Shown here one piece after another: positions 55 to 17,148 of a stretch of DNA of 64,000 bases. Below the pieces are notes generated by a model, which was not told the DNA's origin, did no database searches, and saw only the letters and a list, made by a program, of their open reading frames with translations. The position numbers and the translations under genes were made by a program. Where the stretch lies: NCBI RefSeq assembly GCF_032854445.1, contig NC_088299.1, positions 1 to 64,000 on the forward strand, given 5' to 3'. Within the stretch, counting starts at the first letter, position 1. Each line of letters starts with the position of its first letter. Origin of the DNA: Liolophura sinensis. Lineage: Eukaryota; Mollusca; Polyplacophora; Chitonida; Chitonidae.

Positions 55-1035
55 AATGAATGAATGAATGAATGATTATGGCTTAACGCCACATCGGCAA
101 TATTTCAGCCATATCGTGGCGAGAACAAGGTGAAAACAAGAGACGGTTAAGGTTTACGATATGATAATATGAACATCAAAAGAAAAATAAAAAGTACAGA
201 CATGTTTAAAATCGCATAAAAGAAAAAATAAGAGTTAAAACTCGAAAACCAGGCTTATATATTACATGTATAAATCTATATGTATATAACTGTTTATATA
301 TAGATATTTATGACAATTAAAATTTATATTTTATGATATAGGCCAATGGCCTTCAAATAATTTTGACAACATCGCCAGCGATGCTGTCAAATAAATCATA
401 TATAGAGTTGACTGTGTAGAACCTCTGCCGAACATGGGCAAAGTCTACACAGTCAACCAGAATATGTTTAATGCCATATTGAGCATCACATCCAACACAC
501 TCGGGAGCACTGCTCCCATCCAAGATGAAATTGTGTGTTAGACGAGAATGTCCAATACGGCACCTGGTTAAAACGACTTGGTCTCTACGAGACATATCAA
601 GTGTATATGAATTAAAGCCAATGACAGGATGAATGGCATGCAGTTTATTGTAAACCTGCAGATCCCATTCACCCTGCCAAAGACGACGAATATATTTAAC
701 AATATTAGACTTAAAATCATTATATGGTATTTTAACTTTCGACAAAGGTTTAGTAAGGGCAGCTTTTGCTCCCTGTCAACGACTGTGTTTCCATGGATAC
801 CAACATGACTTGGAATCCAAAAGAATAGGATATCTTTACCTCTTTTAATTAGTTTTGGGTGTATGGCTAATATTCGAAGATCAACGGATTTTAAAATTTA
901 TTATTCTGTATTGCCAAAAGGCTGGAAAGCGAGTCACTGCATATCACAGCCCTCTGAGCATGCCCAGAAGAGACATATGATAAGGCCAAGAGTATAGCCC
1001 TGGCCTCTGCAGAAAAAGATTGAAGACGAGGATGG
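55..1035 (-). mobile_element. I-group LINE copy T1, 3' part
   Basis: The fragment starts with the (AATG)n tail (55-74; CATT repeats on the sense strand). The conserved 3'-terminal module (75-125), the 3'UTR and the RNase H/C-terminal part of ORF2 follow. It is cut at 1035 by the tail of copy A. Fragment B on the far side of A is in the same orientation and lies upstream in the element map. T1 and B may therefore be halves of one element that lost about 1.8 kb when A arrived (inference). Confidence 0.85.
324..1035 (-). pseudogene. LINE ORF2 C-terminal fragment (RNase H end and CCHC)
   Basis: The frame encodes the end of RNase H and the C-terminal zinc knuckle (C-x2-C-x7-H-x4-C, CVGCDAQYGIKHILVDC). 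Only 353-745 is continuously open. A one-base loss near 355 shifts the last residues, and the segment 745-1035 has lost or gained single bases compared with the intact copy at 28267-31962. In the family this C-terminal knuckle is thought to help bind nucleic acid. The fragment is non-functional. Confidence 0.85.
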
Positions 1036-1309
1036 AATGAATGAATGAATGAATGAATGATTATGGCTTAACGCCACATCGGCAATATTTCAGCCATATC
1101 GTGGCGAGAACAAGGTGAAAACAAGAGACGGTCAAGGTTTTCGATATAATAATATGAACATCAAAAGTAAAACAAAAAGTACAGACATGTTTAAAATCGC
1201 ATAAAAGAAAAAATAAGAGTTAAAACTCGAAAACCAAGGTTATATATTACATGTATAAAATCTATATGTATATAACTGTTTATCTATACATATTTATGAT
1301 AATTAAAAT

Positions 1310-4300
1310 TTATATTTTGTGATATAGGCCAATGGCCTTCAAATAATTGATGACAACATCGCCAGCGATGCTGTCAAATAAATCATATATAGAGGTTTAC
1401 CGTGTAGAATCTTTGCCGAACATGGGCAAAGTCTACACAGTCAACCAGAATATGTTTGATGCCATTATTGAGCATCACATCCAACACACTCGGGAGGACT
1501 GCTCCCATCTAAGATGAAATTGTGTGTCAGATGAGAATGACCAATACGGCATCTGGTTAAAACGACTTGGTCTCTACGAGACATAATCAAATGTATATGA
1601 ATTATAGCCAATGACCGGATGAATGGCATGCAGTTTATATGGATCTGCAAGTCCCATTCACCCTGCCAAAGGCGATGAATATATTTAAGAATATTAGACT
1701 TCACGTCAGTATAAGGGAATTTAACCCGAGATACAGGTTTATATAGGGCAGCTTTCGCTTCCCTGTCCACGACTGTGTTTCCATGGATACCAGTGTGACT
1801 TGGTATCCAACAGAATATAATATCTTTACCTCTTTTGATTAGTTTTCGGTGTTTGGCTATTATCTCAAGTATCAATGGATTTTTAAATTTATTATTCTGA
1901 ATCGCCAAAAGGCAAGACAGCGAGTCGCTGCATATCACTGCCCTCTGGACATGCCCAGAGGAAACATATGATAAGGCCAGGAGTATAGCCCTGGCCTCTG
2001 CAGAAAAGATAGAAGATGAAGGTGGCAGACGAAGAGAAGTGACCCGCTGCTCTAAGACAGCCGCAGCCGCAACCCTGTCCCCATCCTTTGACCCGTCAGT
2101 GTATATAAATTTGTAATCCATATAATGAGCCTTGATTTCAGCAAAACTTTGCTGAATTATAAGAGGATTTGTATTCGATTTATTATATTTACGTAGATCA
2201 AATATTAGTTTGCTTTGTGGGGAGAAGCCATGGAGGAGACTCCGGAAAAGACACCGGAGCTATATCCTCCAGCTTGATGTTAGCTCCCACAAAATGGTCC
2301 CGTATGCGAAGACCGAACGAAGGGATCTTGTTAGGACATTTAATATATTTGTCTACATATAATGGATTGAAAACACAGTCATAGGCAGGGTTTGTTGGAT
2401 GAGCTTTAAGCTTACTAGCGTATTGAAGGCTAAGTTTTATACGTCGGTTGTATAAGGAAGGCTCATTTGCCTCCACGTATAAACTTTCTACTGGTGAGGT
2501 TCTAAAAGCACCAAGGCTGAGCCTCAAACCTTGGTGATGAACAGGATCCAACATTTTAATGTACGACTTCCTAGCGGAACCGTAAATGATGGATCCATAG
2601 TCCAATTTAGACCTCACCAGAGAACGATATAAATTAAGTAAAACTGATCGGTCAGCACCCCAATCGGTGCTAGACACGACCTTAATTATATCGAGAGCCT
2701 TTGTACATTTAGCTTTAAGCATTTTTATATGAGGTATAAAAGATAGCTTACTATCAAATATTATACCTAAAAATTTAGTTTCTCCAACAATTTTAACCTG
2801 TTCACCACAAAAATTAAGCTCGGGATCAAGATGAAGCTTCCGTTTATTACAAAAATGCATACCGACGGTTTTAGACGTTGAAAATCTAAAACCGTTTTCA
2901 GTTGCCCATTTCTCGATTTTGTTGAGACAAAGCTGCAACTGACGTTCGATATTATTCATATTCTTAGCTCGGTAGCATATAAGGAAATCATCCACGTATA
3001 AAGAACCCTCTGTGCCAGATGTTAATGTTTTTGCTAGGCTATTTATTTTTATGCTGAACAGAGTTGGTGATAGAATACTGCCCTGGGGTACACCCATTTC
3101 CTGCTCATAAGAGTCAGAAAGAGTGGACCCAACCCGTACCTTAAACTGACGATCGGATAAAAATTGGGATATAAATATAGGTAATCGACCTTTAAGACCC
3201 ATATCCGTGAGGTCTTTTAAAATACCATATTTCCATGTGGTGTCGTAAGCCTTTTCAAGGTCAAAAAAAATGGACACCACATGTTCATTATTAACAAAAC
3301 CATTACGGATAAAAGTTTCAAATCGAACAAGGTGATCTAAAGTAGATCGACCTTGACGAAAACCACATTGAATGTTAGATAAAAGCTTGTTGGTTTCAAG
3401 AAACCAAACAAGTCTATCATTAATCATCCGTTCCATAGTCTTACAGACACAGCTGGTAAGAGCTATGGGACGGTAATTATTTGGATCATTATGATCCTTA
3501 CCCGGTTTAGGAACCGGGATAATACACGCCTCCCTCCATGATGGTGGAAAATTACCAGTTATCCAAATATCATTAATCAAGTCCAAGAGAGTCTCCAGTG
3601 GCTCAGGTGGTAAATGGTTCAGAAACTTATAATATACATTATCAGGACCACAAGCAGTATCGTGGGCCTTTTTTAATGCAGTTCTAAGTTCCTCGATATT
3701 GAATGGACAATTATAATCTTCTAAATTTTTAGAAGAAAAGGGCAATTTAATTTTCTCCTTCTGGTTTTTAATATGTTGGAATTCTTTAGTATAGTTCTTA
3801 GAAGAAGATTTCTTGGAAATTGTTTCAGCTAATTTATTGGCTATATCAGATGGAGATGTTAATATATTATCTCCATCTTTTAAATGCTGAACTTTTGCTT
3901 TATTATTTTTGCCCTTAAGTTTCTGAACCATGTTCCAGACCTTACGCATGGGTGTTTTTGACGTAATGCCTGAAACAAAGTTCCGCCAACAAGATCGTCT
4001 CTTGGACTTGAGTAATCGACGAGCCTTAGCTCGAAAAATACGAACCTGGTTTAAGTTATTATCAGTAGGACAAATATTAAAATTTCGCTCAGCCTTTTTG
4101 CGGTCCTTAATGGCTTTGCGACAGTCCTGATCATACCAGGGTTTGCTTTTGGATTGTGGATTTGTCGAGGTTTTAGGGATAGTTCTATCGGCAGCTCGTA
4201 AAAGAAGCTCGTTAAATTTTAATATTGGATCATTTGCTGCATTGAGAGTCTCTGGAGTGATATCAGCCTCACAGAACATCTCAAATGCGATCCAATCTGC

Positions 4301-5008
4301 TTTATCGAATTTCCACCTAGCTACACGTTCTAAAGAATTAGAAGTGATATGCTCTAGGATAATAGGAAAATGGTCACTACCACAAAGATCGTCATGCACC
4401 TTCCAAGAAAAATCTAGGAGAAGTGATGGATCTGTGATAGTGAGATCGATAGCAGAATAAGCGCCATTACCTGGATGTAAATAGGTATTAGAACCATCAT
4501 TGAAATAACACAGTTCATCCTTCGATAAGAAGTCCTCTACTATCTTGCCCTTATTGTTTATGTTATTACTGCCCCATAGGGGGTTGTGGGAATTAAAATC
4601 TCCCATAAGTATAAAAGGTTTTGGCAACTGTTCTGTTAAATTATGCAATTGCAAAGCTGACAAAGAAATGTTAGGAGGAATATAAACGGAACATAATGTG
4701 ATTGTTTCAGACAACGAAACACGGACGGCCACAGCCTGAAGTTCTGTATCCAGAGAAACAGGGCTGTGGATAATGCTGTTATTTATGAGTATTGAGGAGC
4801 CGCCAGCAGCTCGCTCTTTTTCATTTACATAAGTACTATATAAAGAATAATTTTTAAGAGTTATTTTATCTTTGTCAGATGTCTTCAGGTGAGTTTCCTG
4901 AAGACAAAGGGCAATAGGATTTAGTAATTGAACTAGCTGTGTTATTTCAATAAAATTTACCTTAAGACCTCGACAATTCCACTGTATAATTTTATCATAT
5001 ATCGCCAT
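1310..5008 (-). pseudogene. LINE copy A ORF2: EN-RT-RNase H polyprotein, frameshifted
   Basis: The 936-codon open part (5008 to 2198) begins MAIYDKIIQWNCRGLK. It holds the AP endonuclease (LQETHL, GDFN, SDHFP) and the reverse transcriptase (FDLEKAYD, GVPQGSILSP, LYVDDFLICYR). An extra G near 2218, in a GGGG run just after the WLLP motif, shifts the frame. RNase H (YTDGSKDGD, FSAEARA, CSDSLS, IPSHTGIHG) continues in another frame from 2121. Further indels near 1470 and 1640 break the C-terminal knuckle. The protein would normally nick target DNA and prime reverse transcription there. The start ATG shares its A with the ORF1 stop (TAATG). Confidence 0.92.
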
Positions 5009-6375
5009 TATGGAGGGAGACGTATAGGAGATTTATCTTTGTGTTTGGACCGCGGGCGACCCTTCCGTGGAGATCGGCTGTTAGATCTCCCTGGTGCGGG
5101 TGATGTATCCATCACCTCCGCATCTGAGGTTGAAGGACCAACGTCCTCCAACGATCCAAACTTATTAAAAGTTTGGACAGGGTCCCTAGTGGCCTTAGAG
5201 GGACGCTCTGTTGGGCCACTAGGTTTATTAGATTTATTGTTATTATTTGAAGGGTTATTTTCGGACATATTTTTGTTTCTACGTTGATTAAGTTTGGGGT
5301 TATCGGTTCGGTCAGTATTATTCGCTGGTTGTATTTGTTGTATTAAGGTAGTTTGGGTTGAGGAAGTATTGAAAGCAGGTCGAACAGTAGGTTCAACAGA
5401 AACAGGAGAAGGTTTCAAGTTTGCAATGGGCCAAGTCATTGATGTTTGAGTAGCAACAGATGCTACTCGCTTGACCGCATTGGCAAATGAAGTCTGCAGT
5501 GAAGTATTAGGAGGCGAGAAAAGTTTCCGGGCCTCCTGATACGATATATTGTTTTTAGTTTTTATAGTGATTATTTCTTTTTCTTTTATGAAAAGTGGAC
5601 AGTCCCTAGAGGAGGCCATGTGATCTCCACCACAATTGCAACACTTAACTGTGTTGCTGCAGTCGAAACCCTCATGACCTTCACTGCCACATCGAAAACA
5701 AACAAGTTTATTTTTACATTGGCCCTTGCCATGACCAAATTTCTGGCACGTGAAACAACGTGTTGGGTTAGGGATGTATAAGTCTACACTAACCCTATAC
5801 GGGCCAATGTAAATGTATGATGGAATGGAAGTAGAATTAAAAGTTAACAGGTATGTATTTAGTTTCAGGATATTACCAGATTTCTTCATAGTGAAGCGCT
5901 TTACTCTGGTAACACCCTGCGACTTCAGTTCAGTGCAGATTTCCTCTTCCGAAAGTTCCAAAATATCTTGATCCCGGTCACGAATTATTCCCTGACTGCT
6001 GTTCAGGGAATTGTGAGGGGATGTAAACACAGGTATGTCCGAAATTTTTTTCAACGATAATAAATTGACGGATTGTTGTTGGCGGAGACATTCAATGAGA
6101 ATGTCTCCGGATCTTAGCTTTTTCACATTTTTTAACGTTCCAGCGACTCCCTGGAGAGCCCTTTGCAATAGAAAGGGGTGGATTTTGGAGGCCGGCTTCT
6201 GTTCATTCTTAGTTGAAAGAACAATAAAAGCCGGCCAGCTGTCCGACACATTACATTTATCAAGCGAGTCCGAAAAAACCTCCAACTTCCTCTTTTTGTC
6301 GGTACTCGAAGTTATTCCAGTAGAAGCCCTAACAGATCTATTGGATAAGTTTTGGGATAAATTTAAAGAAGACAT
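5008..6375 (-). CDS. LINE copy A ORF1: gag-like RNA-binding protein with three CCHC knuckles
   Basis: An intact reading frame. Its N-terminal half (SWPAFIVLSTK through GPYRVSVDLYIPN) resembles the RRM-like region of I-group ORF1 proteins. Three zinc knuckles follow: CFTCQKFGHGKGQC, CFRCGSEGHEGFDC and CCNCGGDHMASSRDC. The tail is Ser/Thr/Asn-rich and ends in a basic stretch, SPIRLPP. Known ORF1 proteins of this type bind the element RNA and form ribonucleoprotein particles. An ATG lies four codons upstream (6387), but MSSLNL at 6375 aligns with the starts MSTS, MSS and MASP of other copies. The stop overlaps the ORF2 start. Confidence 0.9.
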   Translation of the reverse strand: MSSLNLSQNLSNRSVRASTGITSSTDKKRKLEVFSDSLDKCNVSDSWPAFIVLSTKNEQKPASKIHPFLLQRALQGVAGTLKNVKKLRSGDILIECLRQQQSVNLLSLKKISDIPVFTSPHNSLNSSQGIIRDRDQDILELSEEEICTELKSQGVTRVKRFTMKKSGNILKLNTYLLTFNSTSIPSYIYIGPYRVSVDLYIPNPTRCFTCQKFGHGKGQCKNKLVCFRCGSEGHEGFDCSNTVKCCNCGGDHMASSRDCPLFIKEKEIITIKTKNNISYQEARKLFSPPNTSLQTSFANAVKRVASVATQTSMTWPIANLKPSPVSVEPTVRPAFNTSSTQTTLIQQIQPANNTDRTDNPKLNQRRNKNMSENNPSNNNNKSNKPSGPTERPSKATRDPVQTFNKFGSLEDVGPSTSDAEVMDTSPAPGRSNSRSPRKGRPRSKHKDKSPIRLPP

Positions 6376-7002
6376 AATAAATATCATAAAGATTCACCCC
6401 ACGTGTTCCCCACCCACCACGGAGTGCCAACAAGGGCGATGCCTGAACCTGGGGATACCCAGCAGGACACACACCAAGGACTCCACATGAGGTATACTCG
6501 AATAGATGGCCTCAATGAGCAAACCCCATTTAGTAAATAAGGTCACACACCAGACACATACTACTCGATTGACCCATGAGCCACCGCCTCAAAACGTAGT
6601 CCCGCAAACGAAATTTCAGAAATAACATTTATTCTTTATTGATTGGTGTTAAGGAGAAATTCTGGGACAACGCAGAGGCAAGACATGACCAAGCCGATTG
6701 ATCGGACCGGGCCCATCCGACCTCCCGTCTCTCTCCAAGTAAGGGCCAAAGTTACGTGTTGGGCGTGAGGATCTCGCAAGACCAACACACCCTCAGCCAC
6801 CAGGATCCCGTCCTCGTAGATTACGGGTCGCAACCCACGGCAAACAGGTCGCTCCCCGGTTGCCTCTCACACAACCGAGAAGACGTGAGCCTATTATATT
6901 CACCGGGCTCACACAGGAGAGCTCTAGGTTAGTCGACTTTTACGACAAGCTTGCCTAGAGGGCTGAGGTCCTATTCTTATCACCCCGGAAACCACACGGG
7001 GG
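6376..7002 (-). promoter_or_regulatory. Structured GC-rich LINE 5'UTR (copy A)
   Basis: This is the conserved leader of the LINE family from its 5' terminus to the ORF1 ATG. It contains the inverted repeats described at 48171-48777. Non-LTR elements usually carry their promoter in this segment, so an internal Pol II promoter is expected by family knowledge. No core promoter element was identified. Confidence 0.7.
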
Positions 7003-8205
7003 CTCAGAAGAAGATTTTGTTGAAATTGTTTCAGCTAATTTATTGGCTATATCAGATGGAGAGGTTAATATATTATCTCCATCTTTTAAATGCTGAACTT
7101 TTGCTCTATTATTTTTGCCCTTAAGTTTCTGAACCATGTTCCAGACCATACGCATGGGTGTTTTTGACGTAATGCCCGAAACAAAGTTCCGCCAACAAGA
7201 TCGTCTCTTGGACTTGAGTAACCGACGAGCCTTAGCTCGAAAATTACGAACCTGGTTTAAGTTATTATCAGTAGGACAATTATTAAATCTCCGTTCAGCC
7301 TTTTTACGGTCATTTATGGCTTTACGACAGTCATTGTCGTACCAGGGTTTACTTTTGGATTTTGGATTTGTCGAGGTCTTAGGTATAGTTCTATCGGCAG
7401 CTCGTAATACAAGCTCGTTAAATTTTAACACAGGATCATCTGCTGCTTTGAGGATCTCTGGAGAGATATCAGCCTCACAGAACATCTCAAATGCGATCCA
7501 ATCTGCTTTATCGAATTTCCACCTAGCTACACGTTCTAAAGAATTAGAAGTGATATGTTCTAGGATTATAGGAAAATGGTCACTACCACAAAGATCATCA
7601 TGCACCCTCCAAGAAAAATCCGGGAGAAGTGATGGATCCGTGACAGTGAGATCGATAGCAGAATAAGCGCCATTACCTGGATGTAAATAGGTATTAGAAC
7701 CATCATTGAAATAACACAGTTCATCTTTCGATAAAAAATCTTCCAAAGTTTTGCCTTCAGCGTTTATATTATTACTGCCCCATAAGGGGTTATGGGCATT
7801 AAAATCCCCCATAATTATAAAAGGGGATGGGAGTTGTTCTTTTAAGTTATGTAACAGAGACTAACAAAGAACAATGAGGAGGAATATAGATCGAACATAA
7901 AGTAACTGTTTCCGACAAAGAAACACGGACGGCCACAGCCTGAAACTCAGTAACGAGATCAACAGGACTGTGAATTATATTATTATTTACGAAAATAGAG
8001 GAGCCGCCACAAGCTCGCTCTTCTTCACCAGAATAATTGCTATAAAGTGTATAATTTTTAAGAGATAATTTATCTTTGTCAGATGTCTTCAGGTGAGTTT
8101 CCTGAAGACACAGGACTACTGGATTTAAAGATTGAACTAGCTGTGTTATTTCAATAAGATTTACCTTCGACAATTCCATTGTATAATTTTGTCTAAAGAA
8201 GACAT
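7003..8205 (-). pseudogene. LINE copy B ORF2, endonuclease part, truncated
   Basis: The frame starts at 8205 (ATG overlapping the ORF1 stop in TAATG). A short deletion near 8168 and a second break near 7850 disrupt it. The endonuclease motifs LQETHL, MGDFN and SDHFP are recognisable. The open stretch 7812-7003 runs through the linker between EN and RT and ends where copy A begins, so RT and RNase H are missing. Confidence 0.88.
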
Positions 8206-9523
8206 TATGGAGGGAGGCGTATTGGGGATTTATGTTTCGACCGCGGACGACCCTTTTTGGGAGATCTACTAGGAGACCTCCCAGGTGCAGATGACGTATC
8301 CATCATGTCTGCACACGATGTCGAAGGATCAACGTCCTCCAACGATCCAAACCTATTAAAAGTTTGGATAGGGTTTCTAGTGGCCTTAGAGGGACGCTCC
8401 AGGGGGCCACTAGGTTTATCCCTTTTATGATTTTTCTCACATTTATTTTTGTCACCCGTTGTTTTCTGTGAAGAATCAACGGGTTTACAAGATTTGAATT
8501 TATTATCATTTGATGTGCTTTCAGACAAAGAAAGTGCTGGATAGTCAGGTAGAGTATCGGATATTTTAGAAAGGTTTATATCAGTTTGTGATGATGAGCT
8601 GGTTGTGTTATTTAAGGGTTTTATGACCAGTTTTTGTGGGTGTTCTTTGCCAATAGGCCAAGTAAATGTCGTTTGGACCCCCACAGAAACAGTGGTTTTC
8701 CTGACAACATTTGCATATGTAGGGGTAGTAAAAACATTTGTGGCAGAGACCAGGCGCTTAGCTTCCAGATATGATGTATTATTTTTACATTTTAAGGTTA
8801 TGATTTCCTTTTCGTTTTTGAAGAGAGGGCAGTCCTTGGAGGGGGCCATGTGGGCTCCACTACAATCCACACATTTTACTGTTTTTGTGCAGTCGAAGCC
8901 CACATGACCTGCTCCCGTACATCTAAAGCAGACCAGTGTGTTGCGGCATTGACTCCTGCCATGGCCAAACCTCTGACAGGAGAAACACCGGGTGGGGTTA
9001 GGTATAAATAACTCCACCCTTACACTATATGGTCCAATGAATATAGACGGCGGAAGGGATGTTTTATTGAATGTTAACATAAGTGTTGGTTTTTACCAGA
9101 TTCCCTTCTAATTAGGAAGCATTTTACCTTACCCCTTGGTGTTTTAGTTCTTCAGTTAATTGTTGTTTATTCATTTCGGTAAGGTCCTGGTCTCTGTCAC
9201 GAATTATACCATGACAGCAGTTCAATGTATTATGAGGATAAACAGAAACAGGCTGCTCTCCTATATTTTGAATTTTTAGTAAATTTTGATATTGTTGTTT
9301 TCTGGAACATTCTAACAGAATGTTTCCAGATTTCATTTTCTTAGCTTGTTTTAACGTTCCAGCATAACTTTCTATTGTTTTTTTAAATACAAATGGATTG
9401 ATTTTCATTTTTATTAGATATTACTAAGAAGGCAGGAAAATAATTATTTCCTCCTTCAATATCTAAGGGAACATCATTTTTTCTTTTTTCAGCAGCCACT
9501 GTGATAATTTCAGGGGAAGCCAT
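8205..9523 (-). pseudogene. LINE copy B ORF1, frameshifted
   Basis: The start is placed at 9523 (MASPEII...). Frames change near 9415 and again at 9080-9124. The C-terminal 291 codons are open and hold three knuckles: CFSCQRFGHGRSQC, CFRCTGAGHVGFDC and CVDCSGAHMAPSKDC. The basic C-terminus ends in SPIRLPP. Compared with copies A and H it is a distinct subfamily, with ESYAG in place of LQGTAG and KMKSGNIL in place of KLRSGDIL. Confidence 0.85.
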
Positions 9524-10126: not shown

Positions 10127-10815
10127 GTGTTCATTGGGAAACCATTGAACATCTTTTCTTTTCTTGCAGTTTTGTTCGGCCCTTATAGGAATTTATCTCT
10201 GATTTGATCGAACGTTTGACTTTAATTTCTGTTCGTTTTTCCCTTCAGACTGTTGTATTTTCTGTTTTCTCGCCTTGTGAAAACACATTTTACAATGATT
10301 TGTTTCTGTTCTTTATTTCTCAGTTAAAGTGGGTTGTGTGGAAGTGTAGGAATGAACAGAAGTTTCATCGTTACACTTTCACTCGATCCCGCATAATTTC
10401 TCTCTGAGTCCTCAGTTCGTTCTCGTATCTGTGTTGATTTCTGTCGTTTTCCTGTCTCTCAGTTTCTTGACCAATGGTCCTGTGACCTTCGATTATGCTT
10501 TATTAATGAAAAAAATGAATTAGAATTTCTGTTATAATTGCATGTATTCTGTCTATAATCGTTTGTACCTACGTGTTTGTAATCTGTACCTTCTTCGCAC
10601 TGTCTTTGTACGTTTTATTGTAAATACTTCTCAACGTATAATTACCTTAACCTTTTAACTCATCCGTTGCTGATGTTGGTCTTCAGCGGCTGTTTATCTT
10701 AATTTTATTCCCATCATTGTACAAATTTCACATCATCTACCTGTAAATAGAAGGTCAGAATTGTATTAAATGCATGTATAAAGTCCTGTGAATGAATGTC
10801 TTTTCAAAGAAAAAA
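10127..10815 (+). mobile_element. Keno-like Tx1-clade LINE, copy 1, 3' end
   Basis: Bases 10130-10500 align well with 16680-17090 of the second Keno-like copy (for example CATTGGGAAACCATTGA and GTGTGGAAGTGTAGGAATGA). They encode the remnant ORF2 C-terminus in broken frames. A 3'UTR of about 270 bp follows, ending in a short A run. The very next bases are U2 snRNA from nucleotide 36 onward. This precise junction is what identifies the element as U2-targeting; Keno is the known U2-specific lineage of the Tx1 clade. The 5' side is replaced by LINE copy B. Confidence 0.8.
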
Positions 10816-10968
10816 GTATCTGTTCTTATCAGCTTAATGTCTGATACGCCTTCCATCGGAGGGCATCGATATTAAACTGATTTTTGGAACTGGGTGAGAG
10901 ATTTGGAGCTTGCTCCATTCTCGCCACGGGTTAACCCGGTATTGCAGTACTTCCGGGACTGGCCCACA
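10816..10968 (+). ncRNA. U2: U2 snRNA gene, nucleotides 36-188 (5' part displaced by Keno-like insertion)
   Basis: The sequence runs GTATCTGTTCTTATCAG, ATTTTTGGAACTGGGTG, GAGATTTGGAGCTTGCTCCA, CACGGGTTAACCCGGTATTG and CAGTACTTCCGGGACTGGCCC. It matches U2 from position 36 to the end, including the Sm-site region and stem-loops III/IV in slightly diverged form. The first 35 nt are missing because a Keno-like element ends here. The interruption falls inside the branch-point-pairing segment (GUAGUA, U2 33-38), so this copy cannot make normal U2. Confidence 0.9.
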
Positions 10969-11204
10969 ACTCCTAACACAAATGAAAATCAGACTTAAAA
11001 TTCAAAAGCAAATTTCCGCACTTAGTCCTCACTTTTATCGTACTGTCAGGCAATTGTACATATGTTGTAAGATGTATGCTTAATTATTTTTATTGTAGTA
11101 TGCAGGCTGTGTGTATCATATATATGTGTTGCCATCATTTGTGTGCATATGCTCGTTACAGAAATATAGGAGTATTATTATAGGAGTATTAGAAACTGAT
11201 CAGT
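10969..11204 (+). other. U2 intergenic spacer
   Basis: This is 236 bp of AT-rich DNA between the 3' end of one U2 gene and the 5' end of the next, both on the plus strand. It should contain the proximal sequence element of the second U2 gene about 55 bp before 11205, but I could not pick one out with confidence. Head-to-tail U2 fragments imply a tandem U2 array. Confidence 0.6.
10985..10993 (+). promoter_or_regulatory. Candidate snRNA 3' box
   Basis: AAAATCAGA fits the core of the snRNA 3' box consensus (AAARNNAGA). It lies 17 nt after the U2 3' end, within the usual range for Pol II snRNA genes. The upstream GTTT part of the consensus is not seen. Its position supports a once-genuine U2 gene rather than a retrocopy. 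Confidence 0.4.
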
Positions 11205-11235
11205 ATCGCTTCTCGGCCTTTTGGGTAGGATCAAG
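11205..11235 (+). ncRNA. U2: U2 snRNA gene, nucleotides 1-31 (3' part displaced)
   Basis: ATCGCTTCTCGGCCTTTTGG followed by GTAGGATCAAG matches U2 nucleotides 1-31 with two substitutions. The sequence then leaves U2 abruptly and becomes the 5' region of the second Keno-like element. The 3' junction of copy 1 is at U2 nucleotide 36, so both copies used the same target site within about 4 nt. Confidence 0.85.
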
Positions 11236-11404
11236 CGAATTCAGTTAGATATCAGTTACGCCTTGCACTCCAGGGCAGCGATATTTATCTGTTAATATTT
11301 GTTTGGAGAGGCTGTTGCCGCTCTGAGCGTCAATCGTTGTGTTCCCGCTTGGCCCAAACCCCAATTGGAGCTGCCCGGGGTAAAGTCAGACCTTACCTTT
11401 CAGA

Positions 11405-12525
11405 ATGGATGCGAGACGGCTGGAGAGAACGGTGAGGGTAACCTTTAACACACACCCCGTGGTGATGTGCATATGCACCTGTTTAATTATTTGACGAAGG
11501 AAGGGAACTTTCCTGTGGATTGTTTTGAAGGTATCGGCCAGTTGCGTGGCTCCAAAGACTGGTATGTGCTATTCCGTTCTGTTGAGTCAGCAAAGAGAGC
11601 TATGGCTCTTGAACCAACCAGCAGCAAGGACTGCGATGGTGGTTTTGTTTTCTCTGTGTTCCTGAAGAGGCATATAAATGTGAGGATTCTGTGGCTCCCT
11701 CTGTCGCTGTCAAAAGAGGTAGTTGACAGATTTGTTGCGTCATACGGAGAAATCCTTTCGTCCAAATTTTCTACCCACAAGATAACAAGCCTCCAAAACG
11801 GGGGAAGGTGGTATAAATTGTCGGTGTCCGTTGACAAGCTGCACACCATTCCGGACATTACGTCAATACATGGTTTTCCTGCCCTGGTCGTTGTTGAAGG
11901 ACGCCCCCCTCTTTGCCTGCGGTGCGAAGGTCGTGGTCACCTCCGTAAAGATGTATGGCGGTGGCCTGCATCAAATGCCGGTCTTTTAAACACGCTACGG
12001 CGGAATGCTCCAAGGCCATCTGGTCTGATCGTCTTCGGGCCAGACAGCCGGCAGGTCAGGACGACGGCCCAGTAGACCCTGTCGAGCGGACAGCCCCCCC
12101 CCCCCCCCCCCACCAAGAAGAGAAGGCGGATGACAGGGATGTTGTCGCCGAAGGGGATGCTCTTCCTTCAGAGGTTGAGGTGCGCGCCTTCCCCGGGCGC
12201 CTCGGAAGTCGATATGGAGGAAGATTCTTCCGACTCCATAGCACCGTCCGAGGATGAAGATCCCGCCTCCAGTCTCCCAATCCCACCCAACCGTGTTGTC
12301 CCCGTTAGACACAGTCAGACGTCAACAGTTGTCAGCCCACTGAAAAGCACAGGAAAGATCTCTGATACGGACTCGTGCAGCTCACCCCAGAACAGCCTCA
12401 CGGGTATGATAAGTGCTGACCTTCCACCCAGTTTCGTCGGCCACGATGACTTGGGCAGCGGAGACGGCCGAAAACGATCTACCGACGACATTTGGGCGCT
12501 ACCTGGAAAGCAAGTCAAACGCTAA
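11405..12525 (+). pseudogene. Keno-like ORF1 (RNA-binding, CCHC knuckles), frameshifted
   Basis: The likely start is MDARRLERTVRV at 11405. A frameshift near 11470-11490 moves into the long frame 11467-12075 (HLFNYLTKEG, WYVLFRS). The first knuckle, CLRCEGRGHLRKD, loses its last Cys to a frameshift near 11952. The second, CIKCRSFKHATAEC, continues in the frame 11955-12257. After a C18 tract (12094-12111) the acidic Pro/Ser-rich C-terminus (MEEDSSDS) continues in a third frame to 12525. This matches the known Tx1 ORF1 plan of an N-terminal domain followed by zinc knuckles. Confidence 0.8.
12094..12111 (+). repeat. Poly-C tract (C18)
   Basis: An uninterrupted run of 18 C falls at the point where the ORF1 reading frame changes. 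It could be a slippage hotspot or an assembly or sequencing length error. Confidence 0.9.
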
Positions 12526-13297
12526 GACAATGGTCATAAGAGTGTATTTCCTCTTTGCTTGTGTTAGTTATCTTTAGTTCTAAGATGTTTCTATTTAAGA
12601 TCTTAAGCTTACATGGCTGTTTCTTATGCTTATGTTTATTGTTAAGTATGGCTAATTTATATTTTCACTCCATTAATTGTAACGGCTTCTTTTCTTATCC
12701 TAAGTTCCCTACGTTGTCTGCTTTTTGTAGCACTTTGAATTTTGACATTGTCTTTCTCCAGGAGACTCATCTGGACTCTACTGGAGTTCAAAAGCAGTGG
12801 GAGTCCCCTGGAGAGGGCAATGTTGTTTTTCTTTTGGTTCTAATTTTAGTTGTGGGGTTGGAATCTTAATCCACCCCCGGTTAACTCTTGAGTTGGGCAA
12901 GATCCATAGGGACTTGTAAGGTCGTTTACTTTGCGTTGATTGTTTCGTTAATAATTTTAAGTTACGTTTAATTTCGGTCTATGCTCCCACTAGGGAGATT
13001 GATAGGCCAGAGTTCTTTCGGTCTTTGGTTCCCTTTTGCGTTTCAAGCCGGCCCATTGTCCTAGCGGGCGACTTTAACTGCATCTTAGATGCTGATATTG
13101 ATAAGGATGGGGGTAACCCGGACCGCGGCTTAGGCGGTTCCGAGGCCCTCAGGTCTTTGTGCTCTGATTTTTCTCTGATTGATAGTTTTCGTTATGTTAA
13201 TCCGAGGGTCCGTTCTTTTTAATGGTCAAATGATTCAGTTTCTTTTTTGCTTGATCGTATTTTCATTTCTTCCTCCTTGGTTAAGTATTTGGTCAAC

Positions 13298-13302
13298 TGT
13301 TA
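13298..13302. repeat. TSD of insertion in Keno-like ORF2, left
   Basis: TGTTA, repeated at 14333-14337. Confidence 0.6.
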
Positions 13303-14332
13303 CGGTATTGAAAACAGCAACAGAAAACAGACTCAGTGACTCAATATTACAATGTTAACAATGCTTTATATATAGAATGAGACGTACAGTTTTACAGACA
13401 GTTAAACAACAACAACTACAACAACAACATACACATCAGTATTACCGGTCTTTACAAGTTTCCAGTTCACCTTTGCATCCCAAGGAATGTATTCCAGGAA
13501 ATCCAACGTAAAGACCATGGGATAACCACACAATTCACAAATTGTCCTAGACAGGTACTTCGCCAGGTTAGCGAACACGAACACAGTACACAGGTTACAC
13601 AGAACTGGAACAGTCAAGCCTTTGAATGACGTCACACCCGCAGAGCACAACACAGGGTAAATACAGGCATGGAGGTATAATCCACTTCAGATCAGTCACA
13701 GCTCCCGCAGAAGCTCACAAACGAGCCGTTCAGAGACGTAGAGTAATGTCACCTTGTGGCAGAACGAACGTCCTTTGCAAAACTGAAAACTTCAGTTTAG
13801 AGTCCTTGACGACCTTGTCGGTCAGGTGAGGTCAGTGTGTTAAACAAATTACACAGTCAACACTGTATAATCATAATAAAGATCCGAACACCAATAAACG
13901 TGACTTCCGCAGAAATTCACATAAATCAGACATCAGTACTACTGTGGTACACAAACGGTGCCGGCATAAAAATCTGTCCTCCCAAATGAAACTGGCATCA
14001 CCAGCTCATATAAATATAATGGACTCGATACGAAAGCGTCGCACACTCTCCTGGCTCCCAGTGGATGCAGCAAAAATACCTTCACTCTGCACAGAAAACA
14101 CGGCTTATATACGTGCCAGGTGGATTCAACTATTCTTAGACACAGAATTAACAGCCAATGAACATCCAGTTAAATAAACAGAGCATTGAACAAGGTGCTT
14201 TCGGCCAGGTCCGCACTGTACATATATAACAGGGCCTGTTATGCTTATAACATATAACACAAAGGTCCGCAGACTAACAGTACTGGAAGACGTTAAATAG
14301 TCATACATAACATCAACTCAGACATTTCAGTT
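13303..14332. mobile_element. 1,030 bp insertion in Keno-like ORF2, possible solo LTR
   Basis: The segment is flanked by TGTTA on both sides (13298-13302 and 14333-14337). Removing it and one TGTTA rejoins the two halves of the EN coding region in the same frame, with one stop at the scar. It has no long ORF and no terminal inverted repeats that I can see. A 5 bp duplication fits an LTR element. On the minus strand a TATATAAG motif sits about 220 nt into the segment. The ends do not read TG...CA, so the class is uncertain. A (CAA)n-rich stretch is at 13404-13430. Confidence 0.65.
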
Positions 14333-14337: not shown

Positions 14338-17148
14338 AATTTCTGATCATTCCTTTGTTAATGCCATTTTGGTTTCCCTCCCGTCGGCGGTGGTTGGGCC
14401 GGGCTACTGGCACTGTAACGTCAATGTCCTGTCTGACCCCGACTTTCCGGAGGATTTTTTAGACTTATGGTCTGTCTTTTCGGATTCTGCAGACCATTCC
14501 TATTCCTGGTCGGAGGAATTTAAACATGAAGTTAAGTTGCTTATTATTTCTCACAGTCGTAGGTTATCAAAAATGAAAAATGCTAGCATTCGCCTTCTCC
14601 GCAAACAAATTTCGGAACTTCTGGCCTCTGACCCTACCTCCCCGTCTTTTTCGGATCTGAACAGTGAATTAAACGATTTAGTTGTTTCATTTAATTTTGG
14701 CGTCAAAATCAGATCAAAAGCCGTTAAGTTTAATTTCGACGACAAGCCCTCCCGTTTCTTTTTTAATAAGGAGAAGGCTAGAGCCCAACGTAAAGTCTTT
14801 GATTTTCTTACCGTTGATGGTTCTGTTTCTGATCAGTTGGAATTGATTTCCGCCGTCCGGTCTTTTTATTCTTCCTTATTTTCGGCAGAGCCAGTTATAG
14901 ATACTTACCTTGATTATTTCTTTTCTGATTTGCCTTTGTTGTCTCTGGCGGAGTCCGAATTACTTGAGGGTCCTATTACCCTTGTGGAGGTGCTGGCTGC
15001 GCTGGCGGGGATGAAGGACTTTTCTTCCCCTGGATCGGACGGCTTGCCCCAAGAGTTCTATTCTTTATTTCTCGATGTAATTGGTCCCGATTTAATTATT
15101 TACCTCAATCGTTGTTTTGATGAGTTTAAACTGTGTGATTCGCAATCGTCATGCTACATCTCTCTCATTTGTAAGGACGCCAGCCAGGCCGACAACCTAA
15201 AATACTGGCGTCCAATATCTTTACCCAATTTAGACTGTAAAATTATCTCTAAAGTTCTATGTAATCGTTTAAATACTGTAATGTCCGCTTTGGTTCACCC
15301 GGAGCAGACTGGTTCTGTTCCGGGCAGATCTATTTTAGATAATTGTCACCTGCTTAGAAATATTATTGATTATGTAGATTCCAAAGATAGTCCTGCTTTG
15401 TTTTTATGTATTGATAATGAGAAGGCCTTCGATCGTGTCTCTCACGAGTACCTCTTTCGGCTATTAGAAGTTTATAATTTTGGCCCCTCGTTTCGGCGCT
15501 GGATCAAACTCCTGTATTCGGAGTCAAAAGCCTCGGTTTTGGTAAACGGTTTTATTTCGCATCAGTTTGCGCTGTCTAGGGGCGCCCACCAGGGGTGTGC
15601 ACTAAGCCCTTTGCTTTATGTGCTCTCTTTGGAACCCCTCCTTAATAAAACTCGTACAAAGCCCGAAATTGAAGGAGTTAAACCTCCAGGAACCCAAAAG
15701 GCTGTCAAATCCCTCACATCAAGGCCTTCAGTTATCCATGTAATTAATTTATGTAATCTTTTTGGATTTGGTTTGGGTTCTAAAATCAACTTCATTAAAA
15801 CGTATGGGTTATGGCTCGGCCGATGGTCACACTCGGTCGAGCCTACACTATATAATGTTAAGATGTTCAACAACACCAAGAAAATTCTTGGTTGTCACTT
15901 AGGCTCTGCTAACGTGAGTTGTATTCAAGAGGGTAATTGGCGGCCGCTAATAGATAAGGTGCAAAATGTCTTTAATCTATGGAAAAACAGGCATTTGTCC
16001 TTTAAAGGCCGCACTGTATTAATCAATGTATTAGGTTTATCCAAACTGTGGTACGTTGGCTCTATTTTGCCCCTCTCCCAAGAGTATCTTAAGTTGCTTA
16101 ATCATTCAGTTTTCCAGTTCTTTTGAGGTGGCACTCATGAGTGCCTAAAGAGGGAGGTCTTATTTAATCCAGTCTCTTCTGGGGGTTTTGGTTTGGTTCA
16201 TATCCCTTCTAAGTTAAAAGCGTTTCACCTTATGCATCTAAAACGTTTAGTTTGTTTATTTCAGTCGGAGGAGTGCCCCATGTGGTGCTATTTCGCAATT
16301 TATTGGGTAGGTCTTCAGCTACGTGGCTTTTGTCCTTTTGCCAGTAATTTAATTCCCCATTCTACTTCTGTCCCTTTGTTTTACCAGAATGCCCTCGCGG
16401 CATTCTCAGAGTTTGTTCTGTTATCCCCTGATGCCGATGTGTTATCTTTTTCATCTATAAAAGCCTATGCTGTCTTTGTTTCCCCCGTATGTGTTCAGCC
16501 CCCTGTTAAACTGTTCCCCAATATTGATTTTATCTGTGTTTAAGAATGTAAATGTAAATATTTTAGAAAATAACGTAAAGAACTTTTTGTTTAGGCTTGT
16601 AAATAGGATCTTGTATAGACGGTGCTTCTTAAACAAAATTTGTAGAGAGCCCCGTCGTTATTTATGCTTATTTTGTGGTGCTCATTGGGAAACCATTGAG
16701 CACCTATTCTTTTCTTGCACTTTTCTTCGCCCCTTATGGGATTATCTCTCTGATTTAATTGAACGTTTGACTAATTTCTGTTCGTTTCTCGCTCCAAACT
16801 GTTGTGTTCTCTGTTTTCACACCTTGTGACAACAGATTTTATAATGATTTCTTTCTGTTCCTTATTTCTCAGTTGAAGTGGATCGTGTGGAAGTGTAGGA
16901 ATGAGCGAAAGCATCATCGCCGCACTTTCAGTCGATCCCGCGTTATTTCTCTCTTTGAGTCCTCAGTTCGTTCTCGTATTCGTGTTGAGTTTCACCGTTT
17001 ACCTGTCCCTCAGTTCCTTAACCAGTGGTCCTGTGACCTTTGCTTATGCTTCTTTAATAAAAATAATGAATTAGAATTTTTGCTTTCATTGCATGTGGAA
17101 TACCTTTGTAATATTTTACATGTATTGTATATATACCTTTGTAATTTT

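What the first reader, a model, noticed from the sequence alone, without database searches (positions are those of the whole stretch)
10127..11300. Two adjacent U2 snRNA genes split at the same site by Keno-like LINEs
The 3' end of one Tx1-clade LINE joins U2 at nucleotide 36, and 236 bp further on a second U2 gene is cut at nucleotide 31 by the 5' end of another copy of the same LINE. Both junctions define one target site. By established knowledge, Keno elements of the Tx1 clade insert in U2 snRNA genes; I know them mainly from fish. A mollusc member with both a 5' and a 3' junction in one locus would define the target and the tandem array context.
Basis: partly seen in the sequence, partly recalled or inferred. 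Interest (0 to 1): 0.88.

Follow-up and report, generated by a model that had tools for sequence, protein, structure and literature searches.

The report
Site-specific LINEs cutting snRNA gene arrays
In this animal genome, selfish DNA elements related to the known Keno family copy themselves into one exact spot of the U2 splicing-RNA gene, relatives have settled in the U4 and U5 splicing-RNA genes, and one U2-targeting subfamily carries a U2-like sequence at its own front end.

Summary
A LINE 3' end with an A-rich tail joins U2 at nt 36 (window 10814|10815). After a 237-bp spacer, U2 nt 1-30 (11205-11234) runs into the 5' end of another LINE.

In the fetched parts of the window's own genome, 6 of 8 U2 3' fragments start at nt 36 and 7 of 7 U2 5' fragments end at nt 27-30. 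Several subfamilies share the site. A contig from another animal carries a distant relative at the same nucleotide.

Corrections: the two copies belong to different subfamilies; the published Keno 3' flank starts 4 nt further in; copies outside U2 exist.

Beyond the brief:
1. Close relatives sit at one identical site in the U4 gene (2 copies, 15-17-bp duplication). A more distant element sits in U5 loop I (1 copy).
2. The window subfamily begins with a diverged U2-like block, present in 3 of 3 copies and not detected in 4 of 4 copies with other 5' ends.

Verdict: Keno-like U2-specific LINEs, a new variant of a known kind. Transcription from the snRNA promoter and any role of the U2-like head are inferred.

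The parts
10127..10814 (+). Copy A: 3' fragment of a Keno-like LINE (end of ORF2, 3' UTR, A-rich tail), cut at its left side by LINE-M
   Evidence: tblastn to P0001 at 10138-10383 and 10409-10522; 84.4% to copy B; 92.0% to the C12 element
10815..10967 (+). U2 snRNA gene fragment, nt 36-188
   Evidence: Rfam 132.7 bits; BLAST to the host U2 of C9
10968..11204 (.). Shortened U2 array spacer; most of the region upstream of U2 missing
   Evidence: compared with four other spacers and with upstream sequences
11205..11234 (+). U2 snRNA gene fragment, nt 1-30
   Evidence: BLAST 93.3% to host U2; weak Rfam match
11236..11300 (+). U2-like head of the type III element (about U2 nt 50 to the Sm region, target segment lacking)
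   Evidence: local score 49, 0 of 2000 shuffles, 0 of 340 window pieces; same block in 3 of 3 type III copies
11404..12522 (+). Copy B: region of ORF1, frame broken
   Evidence: frames of 208 and 149 aa; the 208-aa frame has no Pfam match
12669..13282 (+). Copy B: APE-type endonuclease region, frame broken
   Evidence: tblastn to P0004, whose record carries PF03372, in two pieces
13283..14317 (.). About 1 kb inside copy B not matched by the relatives' ORF2, probably an insertion
   Evidence: gap between the endonuclease and RT matches
14339..16123 (+). Copy B: reverse transcriptase, open 595-aa frame
   Evidence: RVT_1 E 7.9e-28; PDB hits LINE-1 ORF2p
16124..17096 (+). Copy B: rest of ORF2; similarity to copy A stops near 17096, before LINE-M sequence

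Best explanation
The locus is a stretch of a U2 snRNA gene array whose units have been entered at one site by Keno-like LINEs (APE endonuclease plus L1/Tx1-type reverse transcriptase, A-tailed). Proposed mechanism, target-primed reverse transcription (inferred from the junctions): the endonuclease nicks the bottom strand opposite U2 nt 35/36, in the branch-recognition segment, and the A-tail of the element RNA is reverse-transcribed from there, which fixes the 3' junction. The top strand is cut 5-8 nt upstream, so a few target bases are lost and the 5' junction varies (nt 27-30). The elements lie in the sense of the gene behind U2 nt 1 to 27-30, so transcription from the host U2 promoter is the likely expression route (inferred). 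An insertion splits U2 after stem I and so should disable that gene copy. The subfamily of the downstream copy has a U2-derived head at its 5' end. Different subfamilies use the same site; close relatives use one site in U4, and a separate Tx1-type lineage uses U5 loop I, so endonuclease specificity has moved among snRNA genes.
For: Junctions: 6 of 8 U2 3' fragments at nt 36, 7 of 7 5' fragments at nt 27-30. Two uninterrupted elements have both U2 junctions: C5:16026116 to 16020870 and C118:40486 to 44382. RT closest to LINE-1 ORF2p in the PDB, R2 far behind. APE domain in relatives. Nine elements of this genome, U2 and U4 ones together, form one RT clade with P0001 (99/100; 100/100). Of 13 RT matches at 48% identity or more, 8 are in U2 loci, 3 in or beside the U4 array, 1 in the U5 array, 1 elsewhere. 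Two copies at the same U4 site. U5 insertion with both junctions. A Taylorina-symbiont contig has the same U2 3' junction.
Against: The site is not absolute: three relatives are outside U2. The published Keno flank starts 4 nt further in. Some array copies may be duplicates of one insertion, not separate events. Nicking, transcription and mobility were not tested. Only part of the array was fetched, and search counts are lower bounds.
Confidence: 0.87

Rival explanations
1. The U2-like block at 11236-11300 is not part of the LINE. It is what remains of the same decaying U2 gene, the LINE having entered further downstream or having made a long target duplication.
For: It lies directly behind U2 nt 1-30 in U2 order, and cmscan aligns 11205-11362 to the whole U2 model, weakly (29.8 bits).
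Against: Three type III copies at three loci share the block and changes relative to U2 (e.g. ...GTTA-GCCTTG...GGCAGCGATAT), while U2 nt 1-27 in front of two of them is unchanged. Types I and II enter U2 at nearly the same nucleotide without it.
Confidence: 0.1
2. The copies at one site are one old insertion spread by unequal crossing-over of the array, so the site recurrence says little about targeting.
For: U2, U4 and U5 are tandem arrays here; the two U4 copies are 96.6% identical over 4451 bp with the same junctions.
Against: Elements with different 5' ends, 84% different subfamilies and one 3' region only about 40% alike share the U2 site; so does a distant relative in another animal.
Confidence: 0.06
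3. The elements are Utopia-type LINEs, which also enter U2 genes.
For: Utopia also targets this part of U2 and may lose target bases (PMC4640811, section 6).
Against: Relatives carry an APE-type endonuclease upstream of the RT, the tail is A-rich, and the RT is far closer to L1 than to R2.
Confidence: 0.01

Closest known systems
Keno (Tx1-clade LINE of U2 snRNA genes; Kojima and Fujiwara 2004, known to me through PMC4640811 and PMC6136364 and by recall)
   Same: U2 gene target, APE-type endonuclease, sense orientation with U2 sequence at the 3' end
   Different: 3' flank starts at A/GTATCTG, 4 nt upstream of the published TCTGTTC; A-rich tail; subfamilies with a U2-like head; relatives in U4. 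No Keno sequence was compared
Utopia (PMC4640811)
   Same: nearly the same place in U2; several families in one U2 array, as reported for Phytophthora
   Different: Utopia has a restriction-like endonuclease; these have the APE type and an L1-like RT
SINEU, SINEs with snRNA-derived heads (Kojima 2015, title seen as a reference, paper not held)
   Same: snRNA-derived 5' end on a retroelement
   Different: SINEs are short and non-autonomous (recalled); here the head sits on a LINE with ORF1 and ORF2 regions, inside the gene it resembles
Dada DNA transposons of U1, U6 and tRNA genes (PMC8869645, passages)
   Same: small-RNA genes as exact targets, with target changes among related families
   Different: cut-and-paste DNA transposons; unrelated proteins

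Membership tests
Keno | Insertion in U2 snRNA genes | tested here: met
   6 of 8 U2 3' fragments and 7 of 7 5' fragments
Keno | APE-type endonuclease and RT | tested here: met
   Pfam on relatives; the window copy itself has RVT_1 and a broken endonuclease region
Keno | 3' flank beginning TCTGTTCTTATCAG | tested here: not met
   6 of 6 nt-36 junctions begin AGTATCTGTTC, 4 nt upstream; published flank from a passage. The difference may partly reflect how the boundary was drawn
Keno | RT grouping with Keno | not testable with these tools
   no Keno sequence held
Tx1 clade | RT within the Tx1 clade of the L1 group | tested here: inconclusive
   closest PDB chains are LINE-1 ORF2p; trees hold no named Tx1 row
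Utopia | Restriction-like endonuclease | tested here: not met
   APE-type domain found instead
SINEU | Short non-autonomous element with snRNA-derived head | tested here: not met
   head is followed by ORF1 and ORF2 regions

The most novel reading that the evidence does not exclude
One Keno-like lineage in one genome has moved its exact target among spliceosomal RNA genes (U2 nt 36, U4 nt 53-69), while a separate Tx1-type lineage took U5 loop I. One U2 subfamily has also built a working U2 mimic (stem IIb, Sm-like stretch) into its 5' end, so that a transcript of host U2 stem I plus element head resembles the 5' half of U2 and is handled like it (cap, Sm ring, return to snRNA loci).
Probability: 0.3. 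Interest if true: 0.85.

Novelty: new variant of a known kind. Interest (0 to 1): 0.66.

Why it matters
Site-specific LINEs are natural gene-insertion systems, and how an endonuclease changes its target is an open question. Here related elements with U2, U4, U5 and tRNA-cluster sites coexist in one genome, the U2 and U4 ones within one well-supported RT clade, so target change can be tested by swapping domains. The U2, U4 and U5 insertions split genes of core splicing RNAs. A host-RNA mimic at the front of a LINE would be a new way for such an element to exploit the gene it lives in.

Tried and rejected
U2 patterns in viral contigs gave 0 matches in each of two scans. The SINEU paper was not held. 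Splice-site-like motifs at the 5' ends of some subfamilies were seen by eye and not tested. The many repeats in the window are another LINE (LINE-M), not part of this finding.

Not done because the genome search did not complete: further copies of the U5-type element, U1 genes, COX1 for the species name. U6 and 5S were planned but never asked. One protein search was left unused.

Papers: of PMC4640811 I saw passages and section 6; of PMC6136364, PMC8869645 and PMC3747384 passages only; all others as search listings. Searches behind 'no U4- or U5-targeting LINE seen in print': (listings; 0 papers), plus the 2015 statement that only Keno and Utopia (U2), Dada-U1 and Dada-U6 had been reported. 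snRNA heads: listing only. The library is open-licence papers only.

Full report
WHERE IT IS. The window is bases 1-64000 of contig C5 (19.48 Mb) of an unnamed 609-Mb genome in 632 contigs. The few named relatives of its LINEs include molluscs (Pinctada; Patella) and lancelet; the species was not determined.

OBSERVATION. Rfam U2 hits 10796-10972 with 132.7 bits. Against the host's own U2 the true match is nt 36-188 at 10815-10967; the bases before it are the A-rich 3' end of a LINE. After 237 bp comes U2 nt 1-30 at 11205-11234, then a second LINE.

GENOME-WIDE JUNCTIONS. A genome search with the U2 family gave 12 places. BLAST over the fetched stretches shows 3 intact U2 genes (C9, C1, and C5:19478731 in the last 600 bases of C5), 8 three-prime fragments and 7 five-prime fragments. 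Six of 8 three-prime fragments start at nt 36 behind an A-run: C118:31962, C118:44382, C5:10815, C5:69798, C5:90816, C5:16020870. The other two (C118:37955 at nt 114, C118:86642 at nt 66) lie behind LINE-M 5' ends. The 5' fragments end, by BLAST, at nt 27, 27, 27, 28, 30, 30, 30. Nt 28/31 to 35 are missing between the parts. Elements lie in the sense of U2.

ELEMENT TYPES. By 5' end there are three types: I (C118:40486, 45386), II (C118:87549, C5:101810) and III (window, C5:89671, C5:16026116). The type I element at C118:40486 and type III share a similar ORF2 (RT 87-90% to the window) but have different 5' ends. Window copy A is 84.4% identical to copy B over 422 positions. The 3' region at C118:31962 is only about 40% identical to the rest.

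WHAT THE ELEMENT ENCODES. The RT of copy B is open at 14339-16123 (RVT_1). In the PDB its top rows are 8c8j 'RNA-directed DNA polymerase' (4.3e-48) and LINE-1 ORF2p (1.2e-47); R2 follows at 1e-13. The APE endonuclease is clear in two relatives and broken in the window copy. In two trees (74 rows; 51 rows) nine elements of this genome and P0001 form one clade (99/100; 100/100). I take these as Tx1-type; no named Tx1 or Keno sequence was available.

THE U2-LIKE HEAD. Sequence 11236-11300, just inside the LINE, aligns to U2 from about nt 50 to the Sm region with score 49; 0 of 2000 shuffles and 0 of 340 window pieces reach it. All three type III copies show it: scores 53, 42 and 44 against the array-type U2, 0 of 1000 shuffles each. 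The four copies of types I and II score 16-21, within their shuffles. Against the dispersed U2 of C9 the type III scores are lower (45, 34, 36), and shuffles reach two of them (4 and 1 of 1000), which fits an origin from the array-type U2. Of 4964 pieces of fetched DNA free of U2 hits, one reaches 42, and it lies on a type III head. In an alignment of two U2 genes and three heads, stem IIb pairs in 94.3% of cells, and 4 of 7 pairs have a change on both sides; two of those four come from the second U2 gene, not from heads, and 13 of 500 shuffles reach that count, so this is weak support. The sixth pair is C-G in both U2 genes and G-C or G-U in the heads. Minimum-energy folds keep the stem IIb hairpin in 3 of 3 heads while the rest folds differently. 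The branch-recognition segment, the target itself, is not in the head. Origin from U2 is well supported; a function is not shown.

U4. A search with the upstream element's 3' end found 12 matches: five carry the LINE and run into U2 (the query included), four match only the U2 part (one with a few A's before it), and three are outside U2. One of the three lies 33 nt before a U4 gene of a tandem array with 579-bp units. The U4 search scored 42 copies: 40 from C11:9931205 to 9986706, one at C11:9911668, one on C9. The RT search then showed C11:9954172 inside this array, between U4 nt 1-69 and U4 from about nt 55, so that TTGCTAGTTGAAAAC is duplicated. A second copy at C11:9995301 has the same 5' junction and the same site, duplicating nt 53-69. 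The two are 96.6% identical over 4451 bp; separate insertions or an array duplication are both possible.

U5. C11:3659438 (RT 43-44% to the window) ends with an A-tail against GATTTCCGTGGGGAGG. Its 5' end follows U5 ...AAATCTTTCCCCT, so six to nine bases of loop I are lost. It lies at the end of a U5 array: 46 copies scored, 44 on C11 from 3332696 to 3654743 and two on C3, with further U5 copies near 3657 and 3668 kb. In the trees it is outside the U2/U4 clade. An element 96.9% like the U4-spacer one sits near its ORF1 start with a 40-bp duplication.

DISTRIBUTION. In the RT search (76 matches, 75 candidates scored of 1424) the 13 matches at 48% identity or more are 8 in U2 loci, 3 in or beside the U4 array, 1 in the U5 array and 1 elsewhere (C12:27027409, 11 stops). 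These are matches, not elements; two of them on C118 are probably one element. U4 plus U5 arrays make roughly 0.4 Mb of 609 Mb, so 4 of 5 non-U2 matches there is far from chance, on my arithmetic, which assumes independence. More distant relatives sit in tRNA gene clusters (two loci looked at) and at a (GATA)n run (one locus looked at).

INDEPENDENT ANIMAL. A contig binned with a symbiont of Taylorina (recalled as a lucinid clam) has an RT frame and '...acaaaaaaaa|GTATCTGTTCTTATCAG'. Its RT is 38-42% identical to the U2 elements here and lies in another branch; the tree needs three changes for the U2 label. Two RT lineages thus use the same U2 site, by parallel gain or old inheritance. Of the two contigs found in that scan, the other carries U2 that is not interrupted at this site.

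KNOWN AND NEW. U2-specific LINEs are known: Keno (APE) and Utopia (restriction-like) share the published 3' flank, given for Keno as TCTGTTCTTATCAG. Here it starts 4 nt earlier in 6 of 6 nt-36 junctions, so I write Keno-like. Searches showed no paper on U4- or U5-targeting LINEs; the library is open-licence only. The U2-derived head on a LINE recalls SINEU, which I know by title and recall.

SHOWN AND INFERRED. Shown: junctions, recurrence of the site, domains, head similarity, U4 and U5 insertions. Inferred: nick positions, target-primed reverse transcription, use of the snRNA promoter, how the head arose, any function of it.

Noticed in passing
window 327-9405 and 17465-38254 (-), 40138-64000 (+): Most of the window is another LINE (LINE-M: endonuclease, RT, RNase H, separate ORF1), many copies nested in each other and in the Keno-like elements; one ORF2 is 99.9% identical in protein to a copy at C118:75769-79461.
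   Followed up: partly
C118:31962-38029: LINE-M sits antisense in a U2 3' fragment with a 15-bp duplication (U2 nt 114-128, GGTGAGAGATTTGGA).
   Followed up: partly
G000:C6:20899296 and C12:24474457 (L043, L045): A group with RT about 40% identical to the window has its 3' ends in tRNA gene clusters; one search lists many such copies, of which two loci were looked at.
   Followed up: partly
G000:C5:296963-304831 (L044): A group with RT about 37% identical occurs at spacings near 6.1 kb in several places; at the one locus looked at the copies are joined through a short GATA run.
   Followed up: partly
G000:C5 ends: Contig C5 starts in the U2/LINE array and ends within 600 bases of an intact array-type U2, so the array may break the assembly.
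   Followed up: no
L042, U5-type element 5' end: The U5-type element has only about 13 nt between the U5 fragment and its presumed start codon region, so the host snRNA would supply most of the leader.
   Followed up: no
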